From NCBI RefSeq assembly GCF_002197845.1, contig NZ_NIDE01000001.1, positions 868,001-932,000 of the forward strand: 64,000 nucleotides of DNA. The letters are read 5' to 3'. Shown here piece after piece: positions 53,744 through 60,407 of the stretch (positions are counted from its first letter, which is position 1; each line of letters opens with the position of its first letter). Below the pieces are notes generated by a model, which was given only the letters and a program-made list of their open reading frames with translations, had not been told where the DNA came from and made no database searches. A program made the translations under genes and the position numbers. Source of the DNA: Fimbriiglobus ruber. Its GTDB lineage: Bacteria > Planctomycetota > Planctomycetia > Gemmatales > Gemmataceae.

Positions 53744-55243
53744 CTACTTCCGCACGAAGATCACGTCGATCGCCTTCAACGCCACGGGCACGCCGTCGTT
53801 CACCTGGAACGCGATGAGTTGGTCATCGAAGTGGCCGCCGGTGACGCGAAATACGTCTTGCTGGTAATGCTCGAGCCTGCAACGAAAGCTACTCCATTCC
53901 CAAACGAGGTGTCCTTCGGCTACCGTCACTTTCGCGGTTCCGTAAGCGGCGTCTTCGTATTCGCCCGCGTATGCGGCCAGCGGGGCCGACGCTTTCGTCC
54001 CGAGTACGTGTGCTTTCTCCCGTGCCGCACGGGCGGCGCGCCTGGCTTCCTGCTCTTCCCACTCGACTTTCAGAAAGTAAGCGTTCCAGTCTTTCGGCGG
54101 CAGCCCGAGCAGCTGATCGATGAGGGTGTTGCCGATCGCGATGTTCATTTTGGTCTGGTGCAGGTTGTTCACGAGCGCGATGCCGATCTTCTCGTCCGGC
54201 AAGAGCGTGATTTGGGTGCGGAATCCGTCGATGACGCCGCCGTGGGCGACGACGTGCTTCCCGCGGTGGTCGTAGACCACCCACCCCATGGCGTAGCTGA
54301 CCTGCACGGAGTCCGGGTAAACGGGCCCGATCGTTTCGTCTTTGCGCATGACCGTTTGTGGGGTCTTCGTCTCGTTCAGGTTGGCGGCGGAGACGATTCG
54401 CTTTCCGCCCGCCAATCCGTCCGCGAGCTGGAATTTGAGCCAGGCCGCCAGGTCGTTTGGGGTGGCAAACACGGACCCCGCGGGGTTCGGCTCGGCGATT
54501 TCGTAAAGCGGCATGACCTCGATTGCCCCGGCCGGGGTGTGACGGTGACCGGTCGCGCGATCGGCTTTCACGGCGGCCTCGGCGGACGTGAGTGCCACTC
54601 CCTTCATTCCGATCGGGTCGCACACTTTCTCGCGTAGCAGTTCGTTCCAGGGGGTGTCTGCGCGGTTGGCGACGGCCCGCCCGGCCGCCATGAATGGGAT
54701 GCTGGAGTACTGGTACGATCCGCGGAAAGGAGCCGACAGCGGAAGTCGCGCCGCGCGGCGAAGAACCTCGTCGAGCTTCCACGGCGCGCGATACCAGAGG
54801 TAGTCGTGGCCGCCGAGCCCGGTGCGGTGCGTGACCAGATCGCGGAGCGTCACCTGCGCGTCGGCGACGGGGTCGGACAAATGAAAGTTCGGCAGGTGTG
54901 TTCGGACCGGGTCGTCCCACGCGATCACGCCTTCGTCGACCATCCTCGCCATCAAGGTTGTCGTAAACGCCTTGGAACAGGACGCCAGCGGAAACAACGT
55001 GTCCGGCGTCACCGGGATCTTACTTTCGACCGACTTGACTCCAAACCCCTTGAGATAGACCGTTTCCCCACCGCGGACGATGACCACCGCGAGCCCGGGA
55101 GCCTCCCACTTCAGCAACGCCCCGAGTGCGACTCGATCAACGGCCGTCTCGTCGAGCGGTTTGCGGTCGTCGGCCGCGTGCGCGAGGGGGTGGGATAGAA
55201 ATAGCAGTGTGCACGTCGACAAAATGATCGCGGTGCGAGTCAT
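53744..55243 (-). CDS. Exported serine beta-lactamase-like hydrolase (class C/S12 fold)
   Basis: 499 residues from ATG 55243, giving signal peptide 'MTRTAIILSTCTLLFLSHPLAHA'. The catalytic Ser-x-x-Lys is in 'FPLASCSKAFTTTLMA', the Tyr motif is 'YQYSSIPFMAAG' (YSS in place of YxN), and the third motif is 'HVVAHGGVIDGFRT' (HGG). A C-terminal domain of about 100 residues ('APLAAYAGEYEDAAYGTAKVTV') is the DUF3471-like part seen in esterase members. It is probably a periplasmic esterase or peptidase; antibiotic hydrolysis is not implied. Confidence 0.85.
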   Translation of the reverse strand: MTRTAIILSTCTLLFLSHPLAHAADDRKPLDETAVDRVALGALLKWEAPGLAVVIVRGGETVYLKGFGVKSVESKIPVTPDTLFPLASCSKAFTTTLMARMVDEGVIAWDDPVRTHLPNFHLSDPVADAQVTLRDLVTHRTGLGGHDYLWYRAPWKLDEVLRRAARLPLSAPFRGSYQYSSIPFMAAGRAVANRADTPWNELLREKVCDPIGMKGVALTSAEAAVKADRATGHRHTPAGAIEVMPLYEIAEPNPAGSVFATPNDLAAWLKFQLADGLAGGKRIVSAANLNETKTPQTVMRKDETIGPVYPDSVQVSYAMGWVVYDHRGKHVVAHGGVIDGFRTQITLLPDEKIGIALVNNLHQTKMNIAIGNTLIDQLLGLPPKDWNAYFLKVEWEEQEARRAARAAREKAHVLGTKASAPLAAYAGEYEDAAYGTAKVTVAEGHLVWEWSSFRCRLEHYQQDVFRVTGGHFDDQLIAFQVNDGVPVALKAIDVIFVRK

Positions 55244-55263: not shown

Positions 55264-55300
55264 AAACGCGGCCCGTACCTGAATGGTACGGGCCGCGTTT
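55264..55300 (-). terminator. Intrinsic terminator of glycine-rich gene 1
   Basis: 16-bp perfect stem (55264-55279 with 55285-55300) around TGAAT, followed on the minus strand by a T-run (AAAATAAAAAA on the plus strand). It lies 27 bases after the stop of the gene ending at 55327. Confidence 0.85.
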
Positions 55301-55326: not shown

Positions 55327-56214
55327 TCACAGTCCGGACGAACCACCGAAGCCAATCTTACCACCGGCGATGCCACCCTGAATCCCGCCGATGCCGCCTT
55401 GAATCCCGCCGAAGCCGCCCTGTAACCCGCCGATGCCGCCCTGAATCCCACCGATGCCGCCCTGAAGCCCGCCGATGCCGCCCTGAATCCCACCGATGCC
55501 GCCCTGAAGCCCGCCGATGCCACCCTGAATCCCGCCGATGCCACCAATCCCGCCCTGAATCCCCCCTTGCAAGCCACCTTGAATCCCGCCGAACACTTGC
55601 TGTTGCTGGCCACCACCCACCAGTCCGCCGGCCCCGCCGCCGATCCCGCCGGCGTACTGGAGCGGGGATGTTAAAACGGGGACATTTGAAATACCGATCG
55701 CATTGTACCCGAAGCCGCTGATCCCCCCACTGATACTGCCGCTGATGCTGCCACTAATGCTTCCGCTGATGCTCCCACTGATACTCCCGCTGATGCCCTG
55801 CTGTCCTCCGCCGATGCCCTGGAGGCCACCCCCAATACCCTGGAGGCCGCCCCCGATACCACCAATCCCGCCGCCGATGCCCTGGAGACCGCCACTAATT
55901 CCCCCCGAAATGCCGCCGCTGATGCCGCCACTGATGCTTCCGCTGATGCTGCCACTGATACTTCCGCTGATGCTGCCACTGATACTTCCGCTAACTCCGA
56001 GGGACGAGTTTCCCGAACTTAATTGCTGTTGTTGCTGGAGGACTTGAGTAGGTCGCAAGGTACCCGGCCGCGGAGCGGGCATTAGCCCCGGTCCCCGGAA
56101 CTGGCCGCCGAACCGTTGGGCGTGGGCTTTGTGTGGTGAGATCATCGCCGCAATCGAGCCGATGCCAAGGATAGCAGCGGTGATTGCGAGAAACCGAATT
56201 GTGATATTGGGCAT
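55327..56214 (-). CDS. Secreted glycine-rich GSIS/GGI repeat protein 1
   Basis: 295 residues from ATG 56214; the frame is open to 56295. A signal peptide ('MPNITIRFLAITAAILGIGSIAAMISPHKAHA') is followed by 'QRFGGQFRGPGLMPAPRPGTLRPTQVLQQQQQLSSGNSS'. Then come a first GSIS block, a GGI/GGLQGI block, a second GSIS block and a conserved island 'GYNAIGISNVPVLTSPLQYAGG'. A Gly-rich linker ('GGGQQQQVFGG') precedes a long GGIGG(I/L)QGG array ending 'GGKIGFGGSSGL'. No Cys. Not a recognised family; periods of 3 and 4 residues suggest a regular fibrous fold. Paralogous to the next two genes. Confidence 0.8.
   Translation of the reverse strand: MPNITIRFLAITAAILGIGSIAAMISPHKAHAQRFGGQFRGPGLMPAPRPGTLRPTQVLQQQQQLSSGNSSLGVSGSISGSISGSISGSISGSISGGISGGISGGISGGLQGIGGGIGGIGGGLQGIGGGLQGIGGGQQGISGSISGSISGSISGSISGSISGGISGFGYNAIGISNVPVLTSPLQYAGGIGGGAGGLVGGGQQQQVFGGIQGGLQGGIQGGIGGIGGIQGGIGGLQGGIGGIQGGIGGLQGGIGGIQGGIGGLQGGFGGIQGGIGGIQGGIAGGKIGFGGSSGL
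55370..55575 (-). repeat. GGI/GGIQ coding repeat array in glycine-rich gene 1
   Basis: Tandem units such as GCCGATGCCGCCCTGAATCC (plus strand), encoding GGIQGGIGG and GGLQGG in alternation. Confidence 0.75.
55727..56002 (-). repeat. GSIS coding repeats (12-bp period) in glycine-rich gene 1
   Basis: Two blocks, about 55727-55800 and 55911-56002, of alternating CTGATGCTGCCA and CTGATACTTCCG type units encode repeated GSIS. They are separated by GGLQGI-coding repeats. Slippage or recombination could change copy number. Confidence 0.75.
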
Positions 56215-56220
56215 TTGCGT

Positions 56221-56540
56221 CTCAGTTTGAGAGACCAATCGCCAGAGTGCGGAAGTGAAAATACTCCACCACACTACCCGACTGGTTGAAAGCACGGGCT
56301 ATCAAGACAGGAAGGGAGAAGTAACGCTGATCGACATTTTGCTTACCACGTTTAACCATCTTGGTCGGAGCGCCTCCTTCAGTCAATTCTTAAAATACCC
56401 GGTTTTTCATTAATGTCCGCTATTACCCACCTCAAGCGGGAAAACCGGCAGCACTGCACTTTTGAATTCCCAGTCAACTGAGCAAAAAAAAATTCGGCCC
56501 GCGCTTCATTGCGCGGGCCGACGAAATTTCGCACATTGGC
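56221..56540 (-). repeat. Duplicated intergenic unit, copy 1
   Basis: Nearly identical to 57409-57730, apart from scattered substitutions and a few short indels. It includes the 5' leader of one glycine-rich gene, the words TCAATTCTTAAAATAC and CCACCTCAAGCGGGAAAACC, and the terminator of the next. The repeat period is about 1.19 kb, showing tandem duplication of gene plus leader. Confidence 0.9.
56484..56521 (-). terminator. Intrinsic terminator of glycine-rich gene 2
   Basis: 11-bp perfect stem TCGGCCCGCGC/GCGCGGGCCGA around TTCATT, followed on the minus strand by a nine-base T-run. Strong and well placed 34 bases after the stop at 56556. Confidence 0.9.
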
Positions 56541-56555
56541 AGAAATCCATTCCGC

Positions 56556-57401
56556 CTACAGTCCGGGAGAGCCACCGAAACCAATTTTACCTCCCGCGAT
56601 GCCACCAATCCCGCCGCCGATGCCACCAATTCCCCCGATGCCCCCGACACCCCCGATGCCACCAATTCCCCCGACCCCGCCGATACCGGCGACGCCACCA
56701 ATCCCACCAACCCCCCCGATACCACCAACTCCCCCGATGCCACCAATCCCGCCGATGCCGCCCTGAATCCCACCGATGCCGCCCTGAATCCCACCGATGC
56801 CGCCTTGAGCTTGTGCGCCACCGAACACTTGCTGTTGCTGGCCACCACCCACCAGTCCGCCGGCCCCGCCGCCGATCCCGCCGGCATACTGGAGTGGGGA
56901 TGTTAAAACGGGGACATTTGAAATACCGATCGCATTGTACCCGAAGCCGCTGATCCCCCCACTGATACTGCCGCTGATGCTGCCACTAATACTTCCGCTG
57001 ATGCTCCCACTGATGCCCTGCTGTCCTCCGCCGATGCCCTGGAGGCCGCCCCCGATACCACCAATCCCGCCACCGATGCCCTGGAGACCGCCACTAATTC
57101 CCCCCGAAATGCCGCCGCTGATACTTCCGCTGATGCTGCCACTGACACTTCCGCTGATGCTGCCACTGACACTTCCACTAACTCCGAGGGAAGAGTTTCC
57201 CGAACTTAATTGTTGTTGTTGCTGGAGGACTTGTGTAGGTCGCAAGATGCCCGGGCGCGGGGCGGGCATTAGCCCCGGTCCCCGGAACTGGCCACCGAAC
57301 CGTTGGGCGTGGGCTTGGTGTGGTGAGATCATCGCCGCAATCGAGCCGATGCCAAGGATAGCAGCGGCGATTGCGAGAAACCGAATTGTGACATTGGGCA
57401 T
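56556..57401 (-). CDS. Secreted glycine-rich GSIS/GGI repeat protein 2
   Basis: 281 residues from ATG 57401. The signal peptide ('MPNVTIRFLAIAAAILGIGSIAAMISPHQAHA'), Gln-run segment and island 'GYNAIGISNVPVLTSPLQYAGG' are almost identical to protein 1. The repeats differ: fewer GSIS units (with GSVS variants), and the C-terminal array is mostly GGIGGIGGVGGIGG rather than GGIQGG. The end is 'GGKIGFGGSPGL'. Unique parts are conserved while the arrays vary in length and type, as expected for repeat-driven structural proteins. Not a recognised family. Confidence 0.8.
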   Translation of the reverse strand: MPNVTIRFLAIAAAILGIGSIAAMISPHQAHAQRFGGQFRGPGLMPAPRPGILRPTQVLQQQQQLSSGNSSLGVSGSVSGSISGSVSGSISGSISGGISGGISGGLQGIGGGIGGIGGGLQGIGGGQQGISGSISGSISGSISGSISGGISGFGYNAIGISNVPVLTSPLQYAGGIGGGAGGLVGGGQQQQVFGGAQAQGGIGGIQGGIGGIQGGIGGIGGIGGVGGIGGVGGIGGVAGIGGVGGIGGIGGVGGIGGIGGIGGGIGGIAGGKIGFGGSPGL

Positions 57402-57408
57402 TTGCGTC

Positions 57409-57730
57409 TCAGTTTGAGAGATCAATCGCCAGAGTGCGGAAGTGAAAATACTCCACCACACTACCCGACTGGTTGAAAGCACGGGTAATCAAGACAGGTA
57501 AGGAAGGGAGAAGTAACACTGATTGTTATTTTGGTTACTACGTTTAACCATCTTGGTCAGAGAGCCTCCTTCAGTCAATTCTTAAAATACTCGGTTTTTC
57601 ATTAATGTCCGCTATTACCCACCTCAAGCGGGAAAACCGGCAGCACTGCACTTTTGAATTCCCAGTCAACTGAGCAAAAAAAAATCGGCCCGCGCTTCTT
57701 TGCGCGGGCCGACGAAATTTCGCACGGTGA
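57409..57730 (-). repeat. Duplicated intergenic unit, copy 2
   Basis: Partner of 56221-56540: same leader words, same A-run and hairpin, similar 3' codons of the next gene. Confidence 0.9.
57676..57712 (-). terminator. Intrinsic terminator of glycine-rich gene 3
   Basis: Same 11-bp stem as at 56494-56521 with loop TTCTTT, followed on the minus strand by a nine-base T-run. Confidence 0.9.
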
Positions 57731-57746
57731 AAGAAATTCATTCCAC

Positions 57747-58676
57747 CTACAGTCCGGGAGAGCCGCCGAAACCGATTTTACCCCCCGCGATGCCGCCAAT
57801 CCCGCCCGCGATGCCACCAATCCCACCCCCGATGCCACCAATTCCCCCGATGCCACCAATTCCCCCGATGCCACCAATTCCCCCGACCCCGCCGATACCG
57901 GCGACGCCGCCAATCCCGCCAACACCAGCAATGCCCCCGACACCCCCGATACCACCAATCCCCCCGATGCCGCCAATCCCCCCGATGCCGCCCTGAATCC
58001 CCCCGCCACCTTGAATCCCGCCGAACACTTGCTGTTGCTGGCCACCACCCACCAGTCCGCCGGCCCCGCCACCGATCCCGCCGGCATACTGGAGTGGGGA
58101 CGTTAAGACGGGGATATTTGAAATACCGATCGCGTTGTACCCGAAACCGCTGAGCCCGACCCCACTGATACTTCCGCTGATGCTCCCACTAATACTTCCG
58201 CTGATGCTGCCACTGATACTTCCGCTGATGCCCCCACTGATTCCCTGGAGACCGCCGCCAATTCCCTGGAGACCGCCGCCAATTCCCTGGAGGCCGCCGC
58301 CAATTCCCTGAAGACCACCTCCCAACCCGCCCCCGATACCCTGGAGGCCCCCACTGATGCCCCCACTGATCCCGCTAATGCCCCCACTGATCCCGCTAAT
58401 ACTCCCACTGATGCTTCCGCTGATGCTGCCACTGATACTTCCGCTGACTCCGAGGGAGGAGTTTCCCGAACTTAATTGTTGTTGCTGCTGTTGCTGCTGG
58501 AGAACTTGCGTCGGCCGTAACGTACCCGGGCGCGGGGCCGGCATGAGCCCCGGCCCCCGGAACTGGCCCTGGAACCTCTGGGCCATTGCCCGATGAGGAT
58601 AAACCATGGCCACCACCGAAACTGTACCAAGTACCGCGGCGCATCCTGCCAAAAGGCGAATGAACTTGTGAATCAT
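57747..58676 (-). CDS. Secreted glycine-rich GSIS/GGI repeat protein 3
   Basis: 309 residues from ATG 58676, preceded by GAGG. The signal peptide ('MIHKFIRLLAGCAAVLGTVSVVAMVYPHRAMA') differs from those of proteins 1 and 2, so this is the more distant paralogue. The common layout is kept: 'QRFQGQFRGPGLMPAPRPGTLRPTQVL' with an eight-Gln run, GSIS block, GGLQGIGG block, GSIS block, island 'GYNAIGISNIPVLTSPLQYAGG', and a GGIGGIGGVGG array ending 'GGKIGFGGSPGL'. It is first in the direction of transcription, but each gene appears to have its own terminator. Confidence 0.8.
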   Translation of the reverse strand: MIHKFIRLLAGCAAVLGTVSVVAMVYPHRAMAQRFQGQFRGPGLMPAPRPGTLRPTQVLQQQQQQQQLSSGNSSLGVSGSISGSISGSISGSISGISGGISGISGGISGGLQGIGGGLGGGLQGIGGGLQGIGGGLQGIGGGLQGISGGISGSISGSISGSISGSISGSISGVGLSGFGYNAIGISNIPVLTSPLQYAGGIGGGAGGLVGGGQQQQVFGGIQGGGGIQGGIGGIGGIGGIGGIGGVGGIAGVGGIGGVAGIGGVGGIGGIGGIGGIGGIGGIGGGIGGIAGGIGGIAGGKIGFGGSPGL

Positions 58677-59192
58677 GGTGCGGAACCTCAATACCTCGTA
58701 GCGCCGAGGTCCGGCAAGCACGAGCCGGAGTCCCCGGTAGAAATGGGGGGAACTAATGGCGAAAAATTGTAACGAGGTCGCGGTGCGGCCAGCGTAGGGC
58801 GAGACAACTTCTCAATATACTACCCAAAATTCCGCACCTTACAGAGTCGGTGCATATTCCGGGCAGCATCTCTTTTCATTTTTCCATCCGGTACCACCCT
58901 CAAAAGTGGAAAACCGGGTACACCACGCCTCTCTCAATTACCTCAACGCTGGCAACTTGACTCCGTTGACACGGTTGGAAAGAAATTGAGCCGCCGCGAG
59001 CCGTTTTTTCCGGCAAAGTCACTTGACCAGCCCGGCGCCCACGGTATACCCGGCCGCCACTAGGCCCAGACGACGCACGGGCAGTCCCGTTCGGGGAACG
59101 GAGTTCGTGCCCGCCAGGGCGGACATATCCCGCAGTGAGGTTGGGGAGCCTCACTCGCGGGCCGGTCGTCCTCGGCAACCAGGGGGATGCGG
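58677..59192. other. Divergent non-coding region, about 515 bp
   Basis: Lies between glycine-rich gene 3 (minus) and the outer-membrane barrel gene (plus). No gene supported. Around 58896-58920 it carries CCACCCTCAAAAGTGGAAAACCGG, resembling the leader word CCACCTCAAGCGGGAAAACCGG upstream of the other two glycine-rich genes, so it may hold the shared control site. Confidence 0.5.
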
Positions 59193-60407
59193 ATGATGCG
59201 CAACAGACTGTATGGGGGTTTGCTTTTGGTCGGGGTGGCCGTCTTCGTCGGGGCTTCCCCCGCCGGAGCCCAGGACACCTACCAATACGCGGGGAATCCG
59301 GAGATCAACCTCCCGTACCCGACCGGGAACCCGTCCGAGCACGGGTTCTTCACCACGCTCGAATTCATGTACCTGACCCAAACCCGGGCGATCGGCGACC
59401 AGACGGTCGCGTACCGCGGGTTGATCGACTCGACCGGGAATATCACCGGGATACCGGGGACCTACATCGGAAGTAGGCTCGGGGCGGTGACCACCGGTGA
59501 CTTCCCGCGGGGCGGGTTCCAACCCGGGTTCAAGCTCGACTTCGGGTACAAACTAGACGACGGGACATCCATCTACGTGAACTATATGCGGCAGTTCGAG
59601 GTGAACTCGCACGCCGGGGCGAGCCTCGTTCCGCCGTTCTTCCGGAGCGACACGTCGCTCGCGGACACATTCCTGGTGTCCGGCGTGTACAACTTCCCGG
59701 CCCAGTTCGCCGGCCCGCTGAACAAGACCCAGTACGACGCGGCGCAAATCGCCGCCAGCCCGACCGGGGCCGGGGGCGGGAATACGTACGGGATCTGGAA
59801 CGGTGCATCCCAGATGGACATCCAGTTCAACCAGTGGTTCACCCAGGCCGAGTTCGGGATGCGGGTGCCGATGTTCCAGAATGAATACTCCCGCGTCTAC
59901 GGGATGGGCGGTGCCCGGTTCGACTGGTTCTACGACCGGTTCAAGTGGCTGACGGTGGATTACGACATCAACGGCAACCAGAGCCCGAGTTACGCGGCCA
60001 CGTACACGAACACGCTGTCCCAGCGGATGTACGGGCCGTTCGTCGGGTGCGGGAACGAGGTCTTCCTCGGCAACCGGGCGTCGTTGAGTCTGGACCTGAC
60101 CGGGGCTCTGCTGATGGACATCATCAAAGAGCGGGCCAAATACGAGTTGAACGACGAAACGATCCAGAACAAGTTGTCACGCGACGAGTTCAACATCGTC
60201 CCGTCGGTCACGGCGAACGTCAACCTGTGGTGGTACCCGATCGAGGGCGTACAGATCAGAGCGGGGTACAGCTGCTACACGTTCTTCAACACCAAGTACA
60301 TGAGCAGCCCGGTCGGGTTCGACTACGCGACCATCGACCCGGTGTACTCGACCCAGTTCATCCGCATCGTTCACGGGGCGAACTTCGGCCTGATGTTGTT
60401 CTTCTAA
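59193..60407 (+). CDS. Outer-membrane beta-barrel protein, BBP7-like
   Basis: 404 residues from ATG 59193, chosen because AGGGGG lies six bases upstream (an ATG at 59187 touches it). Signal peptide 'MMRNRLYGGLLLVGVAVFVGASPAGA'. The mature part has alternating amphipathic strands rich in Tyr/Phe/Gly, such as 'GGFQPGFKLDFGYKLDDGTSIYVNYMRQFEV', 'QWFTQAEFGMRVPMF' and 'VNLWWYPIEGVQIRAGYSCYTFFN', and ends with Phe, as outer-membrane barrels do. Similar to the planctomycete BBP7 family, but this assignment is by general features. Confidence 0.65.
   Translation: MMRNRLYGGLLLVGVAVFVGASPAGAQDTYQYAGNPEINLPYPTGNPSEHGFFTTLEFMYLTQTRAIGDQTVAYRGLIDSTGNITGIPGTYIGSRLGAVTTGDFPRGGFQPGFKLDFGYKLDDGTSIYVNYMRQFEVNSHAGASLVPPFFRSDTSLADTFLVSGVYNFPAQFAGPLNKTQYDAAQIAASPTGAGGGNTYGIWNGASQMDIQFNQWFTQAEFGMRVPMFQNEYSRVYGMGGARFDWFYDRFKWLTVDYDINGNQSPSYAATYTNTLSQRMYGPFVGCGNEVFLGNRASLSLDLTGALLMDIIKERAKYELNDETIQNKLSRDEFNIVPSVTANVNLWWYPIEGVQIRAGYSCYTFFNTKYMSSPVGFDYATIDPVYSTQFIRIVHGANFGLMLFF

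What the first reader, a model, noticed from the sequence alone, without database searches (positions are those of the whole stretch)
55327..58676. Tandem trio of secreted glycine-rich repeat proteins as a candidate structural surface system
Three adjacent genes encode exported proteins of 280-310 residues with the same order: Gln run, GSIS block, GGL/GGI block, GSIS block, conserved island, GGI array, fixed C-terminal end. They lack Cys and enzymatic motifs. Runs with a period of three (GGI) could form polyglycine-II-like bundles and runs of four (GSIS) a beta-solenoid or silk-like sheet (inference). I know of no named family with this architecture. It could be a fibre, holdfast, ice-binding or sheath material.
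Basis: partly seen in the sequence, partly recalled or inferred. Interest (0 to 1): 0.88.

Follow-up and report, generated by a model that had tools for sequence, protein, structure and literature searches.

The report
Capped glycine-rich secreted protein family
The three neighbouring genes belong to a previously unnamed family of exported, glycine-rich, silk-like proteins found across one family of planctomycete bacteria: the two ends and a short middle patch stay recognisable while the repetitive middle changes freely, and the genes often sit beside the gene for an outer-membrane porin.

Summary
In detail: three adjacent minus-strand genes (309, 281 and 295 aa) encode exported Gly/Ser/Ile repeat proteins with the same architecture, under strong purifying selection, each followed by its own terminator hairpin. 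By profile and synteny I found relatives in 38 of 95 Gemmataceae genomes (25 of 39 genera) and none convincing in about 300 other genomes of the class. The members share a signal peptide ending A-Q, an LRP-type N-terminal cap, in many members a short island, and a C-terminal cap GGGK(x)GF(x)G..GL. The core is nearly charge-free, and its repeats are replaced wholesale between genera (GGI/GSIS, GGM, GGGF, QGGF, NNG). In most members with the consensus C-cap that cap holds the only lysine of the core and C-terminus, 9-10 residues before the end. In about 28 of 66 testable genomes the gene lies divergently beside a conserved Legionella-MOMP-like outer-membrane barrel, as it does here. Tandem amplification has recurred. 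Most likely it is a secreted structural surface or matrix protein that self-associates through its Gly core and is positioned through its caps. Function is inferred.

The parts
57747..58676 (-). Copy A, 309 aa secreted glycine-rich protein, nearest to the barrel gene
   Evidence: ORF and composition; family profile match E 7e-34, with the three copies among the 18 profile rows; leave-out N-terminal profile E 1e-6
56556..57401 (-). Copy B, 281 aa paralogue
   Evidence: family profile E 9e-39, copies included in the profile; leave-out N-terminal profile E 3e-4
55327..56214 (-). Copy C, 295 aa paralogue
   Evidence: family profile E 9e-38, copies included in the profile; leave-out N-terminal profile E 1e-4
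58581..58676 (-). Signal peptide of copy A, predicted cleavage AMA|Q; B and C have AHA|Q
   Evidence: sequence; the Q after the cleavage site is an invariant column of the family alignment A6; no signal-peptide program was available
58020..58151 (-). Island of copy A (SGFGYNAIGISNIPVLTSPLQYAGG...QQQQVFGG); equivalents at about 56817-56951 (B) and 55585-55719 (C)
   Evidence: A vs B in the island: dN 0.020, dS 0.220; similar islands in other genera, e.g. IGIQIVPTIS (L128), FPQIGPGYLGMGGG (L214)
57750..57797 (-). C-terminal cap of copy A, GGIAGGKIGFGGSPGL, with the only lysine after the signal peptide (K300); caps of B 56559-56606 and C 55330-55377
   Evidence: C-cap profile built without this genome scores 31-40 bits at the exact C-ends of all three copies, against at most 21 bits for their internal repeats and 9.7 bits elsewhere in the window (bias correction off); lone Lys
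57684..57713 (-). Intrinsic-terminator hairpin after copy A
   Evidence: 12-bp stem and T-run
56494..56521 (-). Intrinsic-terminator hairpin after copy B
   Evidence: 11-bp stem and T-run
55264..55300 (-). Intrinsic-terminator hairpin after copy C
   Evidence: 16-bp stem and T-run
58677..59186 (.). Divergent intergenic region between the glycine-rich genes and the barrel gene (510 bp)
   Evidence: spacing of 435-620 bp recurs in most genomes with this arrangement
59187..60407 (+). Outer-membrane beta-barrel of the Legionella MOMP type, conserved genomic neighbour; found in 89 of 95 Gemmataceae genomes
53744..55243 (-). Serine hydrolase (PF00144 + DUF3471) next to copy C; in several genomes without a glycine-rich gene at this site it lies directly beside the barrel gene

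Best explanation
The trio are tandem copies of a Gemmataceae-specific family of Sec-exported structural proteins. SHOWN by sequence: a signal peptide, a short N-terminal cap, in many members an island, a long almost charge-free glycine-rich core, and a conserved C-terminal cap GGGK(x)GF(x)G..GL. The caps are conserved across genera while the core is replaced; the genes duplicate in tandem; and the gene often lies divergently beside a MOMP-like outer-membrane barrel gene. INFERRED: after export and cleavage before Gln the chain crosses or associates with the outer membrane and self-associates through its uncharged Gly/hydrophobic/Gln core into an insoluble, elastic surface or matrix layer (silk-, abductin- or plant-GRP-like). 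The core needs only a composition, so it can turn over; the caps position, nucleate or cross-link the subunits, with the lone C-terminal lysine as the most exposed candidate residue. Adjacency to the barrel most likely reflects shared regulation or a shared place in the cell envelope, not a dedicated exporter.
For: Same architecture and cap motifs in 38 genomes of 25 genera (tally). Profiles built without this genome rank the trio first among 908 window ORFs (N-terminal, E 1e-6 to 3e-4) and hit their exact C-ends. Caps conserved while cores differ: two tandem genes in G043 share 61% of the N-terminal 75 aa and 75% of the last 16 aa, yet one core is Gly/Met and the other Gly/Phe/Gln. No acidic residue in the trio and almost no charge in most family cores; the lone Lys sits 9 or 10 residues before the end in most members. 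Synteny: 24 of 81 barrel loci pass a strict filter upstream, all divergent, and none downstream; about 28 of 66 by curation. Purifying selection. Own terminator per gene. Tandem copies: 3 in the window, 2 in G043, 3 in G071, 3+3 in G094, about 8-10 matches in G038/G039. Published precedents that GGX repeats adopt polyproline-II-type helices (GroEL tails, PMC12571646; GGX motifs and plant GRPs, PMC13243192).
Against: No expression, localisation or biochemical data. Codon usage shows no bias suggesting high expression. AlphaFold2 gives no structure. No sorting or anchoring domain is recognised, so extracellular as opposed to periplasmic location is not shown. The N-cap without its signal peptide is too weak to detect the trio. 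Three distant members (L171-L173) end ...GL or ...GI without the GKxGF motif, and L200 lacks the lysine.
Confidence: 0.5

Rival explanations
1. The barrel is a dedicated outer-membrane exporter for the glycine-rich subunits, as FapF is for FapC in the Fap amyloid system.
For: Conserved divergent adjacency; the partner is an outer-membrane barrel; the substrate is low-complexity and exported. FapF/FapC precedent: PMC5557850 (abstract).
Against: The barrel is found in 89 of 95 genomes, many with no glycine-rich gene beside it, while g6 and g15 keep their glycine-rich genes elsewhere. Its fold is closest to Legionella MOMP, omptins and OpcA (Z about 19-22), with FapF at Z 9.7 among many unrelated barrels. 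FapF's other partners were not searched for.
Confidence: 0.12
2. Covalently cross-linked matrix: the Gln-rich segments and the single conserved C-terminal lysine are joined by a transglutaminase-like enzyme into a network.
For: One lysine 9-10 residues before the end in most members and abundant Gln in many cores; eight Transglut_core loci in the same genome.
Against: Transglut_core domains are common (10 of 14 control genomes) and usually not cross-linking enzymes (general knowledge); none was found near the locus; some cores have little Gln (GGM types); the g15 cap has two or three lysines.
Confidence: 0.12
3. A periplasmic protein associated with the outer membrane or with the barrel itself, acting as packing material or a porin partner, not extracellular.
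For: Signal peptide without any recognised second sorting domain; conserved adjacency to a porin-like gene.
Against: The gene lies away from the barrel in g6, g15 and g37, and tandem amplification is more typical of bulk material.
Confidence: 0.2
4. Ice-binding or antifreeze protein with a polyglycine-II bundle, as in the snow flea protein.
For: GGI arrays with period 3 resemble GGX polyproline-II bundles (PMC13243192).
Against: Gly period and X residue are not conserved in the family; no structure predicted.
Confidence: 0.03

Closest known systems
[quoted passage not shown]
   Same: Exported, low-complexity GGX-type cores; tandem gene clusters and core turnover. PMC13243192 lists plant GRPs as GGX proteins; PMC12571646 compares GGM tails with abductin; the silk comparison is general knowledge
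   Different: No sequence homology found; bacterial; short proteins with a specific C-terminal cap, where spider silks have folded terminal domains
Fap functional amyloid (FapC/FapF) and curli (CsgA/CsgG)
   Same: Secreted low-complexity subunit, with an outer-membrane barrel gene nearby in the Fap case
   Different: Repeats unlike CsgA or FapC; the barrel is MOMP-like, with FapF far lower in the ranking; chaperone and nucleator partners were not looked for; amyloid formation not testable here
GroEL GGM C-terminal tails
   Same: GGM repeats like those of the g15 and G043 cores; shown to have polyproline-II content (PMC12571646)
   Different: A short tail on a cytosolic chaperonin; a GroEL-like frame appeared in these searches as low-complexity background
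Legionella major outer membrane protein (PF05150) and BBP7 (PF07585), for the neighbouring barrel
   Same: 38 of 52 barrel homologues match Legionella_OMP and 4 match BBP7; predicted fold nearest 9nh1, Z 22.5, 3.4 A over 246 residues
   Different: The window protein itself has no Pfam match; 15% sequence identity over the structural match

Membership tests
Gemmataceae capped glycine-rich family (defined here) | Signal peptide with cleavage before Gln | tested here: met
   Q33 invariant in the 18-member alignment; cleavage itself is inferred from the motif
Gemmataceae capped glycine-rich family (defined here) | C-terminal cap GGGK(x)GF(x)G..GL | tested here: met
   leave-out C-cap profile hits the exact ends of all three copies at 31-40 bits with bias correction off; with it on, only copy B passes, E 1e-4
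Gemmataceae capped glycine-rich family (defined here) | Divergent neighbour of the MOMP-like barrel, or a relocated copy | tested here: met
   window: 510 bp from copy A to the barrel gene; other genomes
Any Pfam or NCBIfam family | Profile match above cut-off | tested here: not met
   no match for the trio or for 18 members
Fap amyloid system | FapF-type barrel partner | tested here: inconclusive
   FapF appears at Z 9.7, well below MOMP, omptins and OpcA
Fap amyloid system / curli | Subunit forms cross-beta amyloid | not testable with these tools
   needs purified protein
Polyglycine-II / glycine-rich PPII bundle proteins | GGX repeats at period 3 | tested here: inconclusive
   period 3 leads in copies A and B, but copy C peaks at period 4 and the family at 3, 4, 5 or 7
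Polyglycine-II / glycine-rich PPII bundle proteins | PPII-bundle structure | tested here: inconclusive
   AlphaFold2 pLDDT 38
Legionella MOMP-like barrels (neighbour gene) | Profile match and barrel fold | tested here: met
   38 of 52 homologues match PF05150, though not the window protein itself; AF2 pLDDT 86, Z 22.5 to 9nh1

The most novel reading that the evidence does not exclude
A new class of bacterial biomaterial: a silk-like protein family in which the caps are the selected part (assembly and a lone-lysine anchoring or cross-linking site) and the glycine core is an exchangeable filler that is rewritten between genera, placed together with a partner outer-membrane barrel to make the surface coat of Gemmataceae.
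Probability: 0.25. Interest if true: 0.85.

Novelty: new variant of a known kind. Interest (0 to 1): 0.62.

Why it matters
Planctomycetes have unusual envelopes and surface fibres or matrix whose protein components are poorly known. A family that is widespread in Gemmataceae, unnamed in Pfam and NCBIfam, and marked by a diagnostic C-terminal cap and a conserved locus is a concrete candidate for that material. Because the caps are conserved while the core is replaced by GGI, GGM, GGGF, QGGF or NNG repeats, natural variants form a ready series for testing how composition sets the properties of glycine-rich materials, and which residues a short cap needs in order to assemble them.

Tried and rejected
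AlphaFold2 on the trio alignment: pLDDT 38, no usable fold. Both genome-contig scans: nothing for the window protein, and one MAG record for the g15 set. Profile of the mature N-cap without signal peptide: does not find the trio, so N-terminal homology leans on the signal-peptide region. Search for shared k-mers in 27 divergent intergenic regions: at or barely above shuffles, so no promoter motif is claimed. Rfam on the region: nothing. Sigma-70 scan: no more sites than shuffles. Codon usage: no sign of high expression. Dedicated exporter idea: kept only as a rival, because the barrel is nearly universal and its fold is MOMP-like. Alignment A5 used wrong coordinates for L128 and was discarded. 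GroEL-like GGM tails and simple-repeat ORFs among the hits were set aside. L183 and L164 were left out of the family as atypical. Literature: no paper describing this family was found in the open-access library.
Full report
OBSERVATION. They are about 88% identical over the aligned columns and share the described order of segments. They contain no Asp or Glu at all, and no Cys outside the signal peptide. Gly codons are mixed and the copies differ mainly at synonymous sites (A vs B dS 0.90, dN 0.09; A vs C dS 1.21, dN 0.10; B vs C dS 0.33, dN 0.06), so selection at the protein level maintains the repeats. Each gene is followed by a strong terminator-like hairpin with a T-run, and B and C have nearly identical upstream regions, so the genes are probably transcribed singly; this is inference.

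NO NAMED FAMILY. Pfam and NCBIfam give no match for the trio or for an 18-member family alignment, and the PDB has no sequence relative of copy A. BLAST finds only these three copies in their own 12.36-Mb genome. From memory, that size fits Fimbriiglobus ruber SP5; this was not verified.

A FAMILY EXISTS. A search of 95 Gemmataceae genomes first showed short secreted Gly-Met proteins in genus g15 with similar ends. A divergent pair in G050 (a secreted glycine-rich gene beside a homologue of window gene 59187-60407) pointed to a conserved locus. That gene is found in 89 of 95 genomes. I then read the DNA upstream of it in 81 loci. A strict filter for secreted, low-entropy, Gly-rich ORFs is met upstream in 24 of 81 loci, always divergent, and downstream in none. 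By curation 28 of the 66 barrels placed on a tree have such a gene; carriers lie on both sides of the (midpoint) root and 7-10 changes are needed, which fits an old association with repeated loss or relocation. The spacing is 435-620 bp in most cases.

WHAT IS CONSERVED. All 18 members of alignment A6 keep Gln after the predicted cleavage site. Many keep an FxGxFR/LRP segment and an island resembling the window's NAIGISNVPVLTSPLQYAGG (for example GIGIQIVPTIS, FPQIGPGYLGMGGG), and most end GGGK(x)GF(x)G..GL. Profiles built without this genome find the trio: the N-terminal 75-residue profile ranks the three copies first of 908 window ORFs (E 1e-6, 1e-4, 3e-4), and the C-cap profile hits the exact C-ends at 31-40 bits with bias correction off, against 9.7 bits elsewhere; with correction on only copy B passes (E 1e-4). 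The mature N-cap alone is not enough to detect the trio. The core is nearly charge-free in most members. In the window copies, and in most members with the consensus C-cap, the core and C-terminus contain one lysine, 9 or 10 residues before the end. Exceptions: g15 caps carry two or three lysines, L200 has none, and L171-L173 deviate.

WHAT CHANGES. The residue between the glycines and the repeat period are replaced between genera, and even between tandem copies in one genome (G043: Gly-Met and Gly-Phe-Gln cores with 61% identical N-terminal 75 residues and 75% identical C-caps). The dominant Gly period is 3, 4, 5 or 7 (in several members the signal is not above shuffles). A fold tied to one period therefore cannot be the family's defining feature. 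AlphaFold2 gave no structure for the trio. GGX repeats are known to adopt polyproline-II-type helices in other proteins (PMC12571646, PMC13243192), so local PPII structure remains possible.

DISTRIBUTION AND COPY NUMBER. Pooling the searches gives 38 genomes in 25 genera with at least one member by curation (tally; sources); some members are cut by contig ends and are counted on locus and N-terminus alone. In 397 genomes of the class no convincing member appears outside Gemmataceae: of the two hits outside with the family profile, one (L215) lacks the architecture and the other lies in an open frame of 74 residues. In g6 and g37 members sit elsewhere, in three genomes (L237, L241, L242) in a shared second neighbourhood; in g15 they are amplified away from the barrel. 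Tandem copies occur in the window (3), G043 (2), G071 (3) and G094 (two groups of 3).

THE NEIGHBOURS. The barrel gene product is predicted with good confidence (pLDDT 86) and its best solved match is a Legionella porin of the MOMP type (Z 22.5, 3.4 A over 246 residues); 38 of 52 homologues match Legionella_OMP in Pfam. FapF, the Fap amyloid exporter, ranks far lower (Z 9.7). Since the barrel is nearly universal and many genomes have it without a glycine-rich neighbour, a dedicated exporter is unlikely. In several of these genomes, including G007 of the same genus, a serine hydrolase like the one that follows copy C lies directly beside the barrel gene, which gives the arrangement hydrolase - (glycine-rich gene) | barrel.

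MECHANISM. Shown: family, caps, exchangeable core, synteny, tandem duplication, purifying selection. Inferred: Sec export, cleavage before Gln, self-association of the uncharged core into a surface or matrix material, with the caps (and possibly the lone lysine) as the assembly or anchoring parts. Codon usage does not indicate high expression, and nothing here shows whether the protein is extracellular or periplasmic. A transglutaminase-type Gln-Lys cross-link is a testable variant; the genome has eight Transglut_core loci, but such domains are common.

VERDICT. The new findings are the family, its diagnostic C-terminal cap, the exchangeable core and the link to a MOMP-like barrel. I rate it a new variant of a known kind (secreted structural glycine-rich proteins).

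Noticed in passing
window 59187-60407: Outer-membrane barrel conserved in 89 of 95 Gemmataceae genomes; distant from Pfam's Legionella_OMP and BBP7 and itself without a Pfam match; may be a major porin of the family.
   Followed up: partly
L237, L241, L242: In some g6 and g37 genomes the glycine-rich gene sits in a second conserved neighbourhood, beside what looks from its sequence like guaB with a hemN-like gene nearby (names recalled from sequence, not tested).
   Followed up: partly
L055:4995-6017 and L056:4857-5891: Exported proteins with GISGMPGGISG-type repeats followed by a zinc-ribbon-like CxxC pair and a membrane segment (G009, G094); similar repeat type in a different architecture.
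   Followed up: no
L076:1405-2112: Protein in G036 with a repeated GCWGCYGC (Cys-Trp-Gly) tract; unrelated to the trio.
   Followed up: no
window 56215-56480 and 57402-57680: Upstream regions of copies B and C are nearly identical, and copy A's upstream shares a short CCTCAA..GGGAAAACCGG-like block; possible promoter element.
   Followed up: no
L053:5255-7459, L064:5039-7525, L065:1534-4131: A large conserved ORF (about 735-866 aa, with a glycosyltransferase-like start) lies directly next to the g15 glycine-rich genes in three genomes.
   Followed up: no
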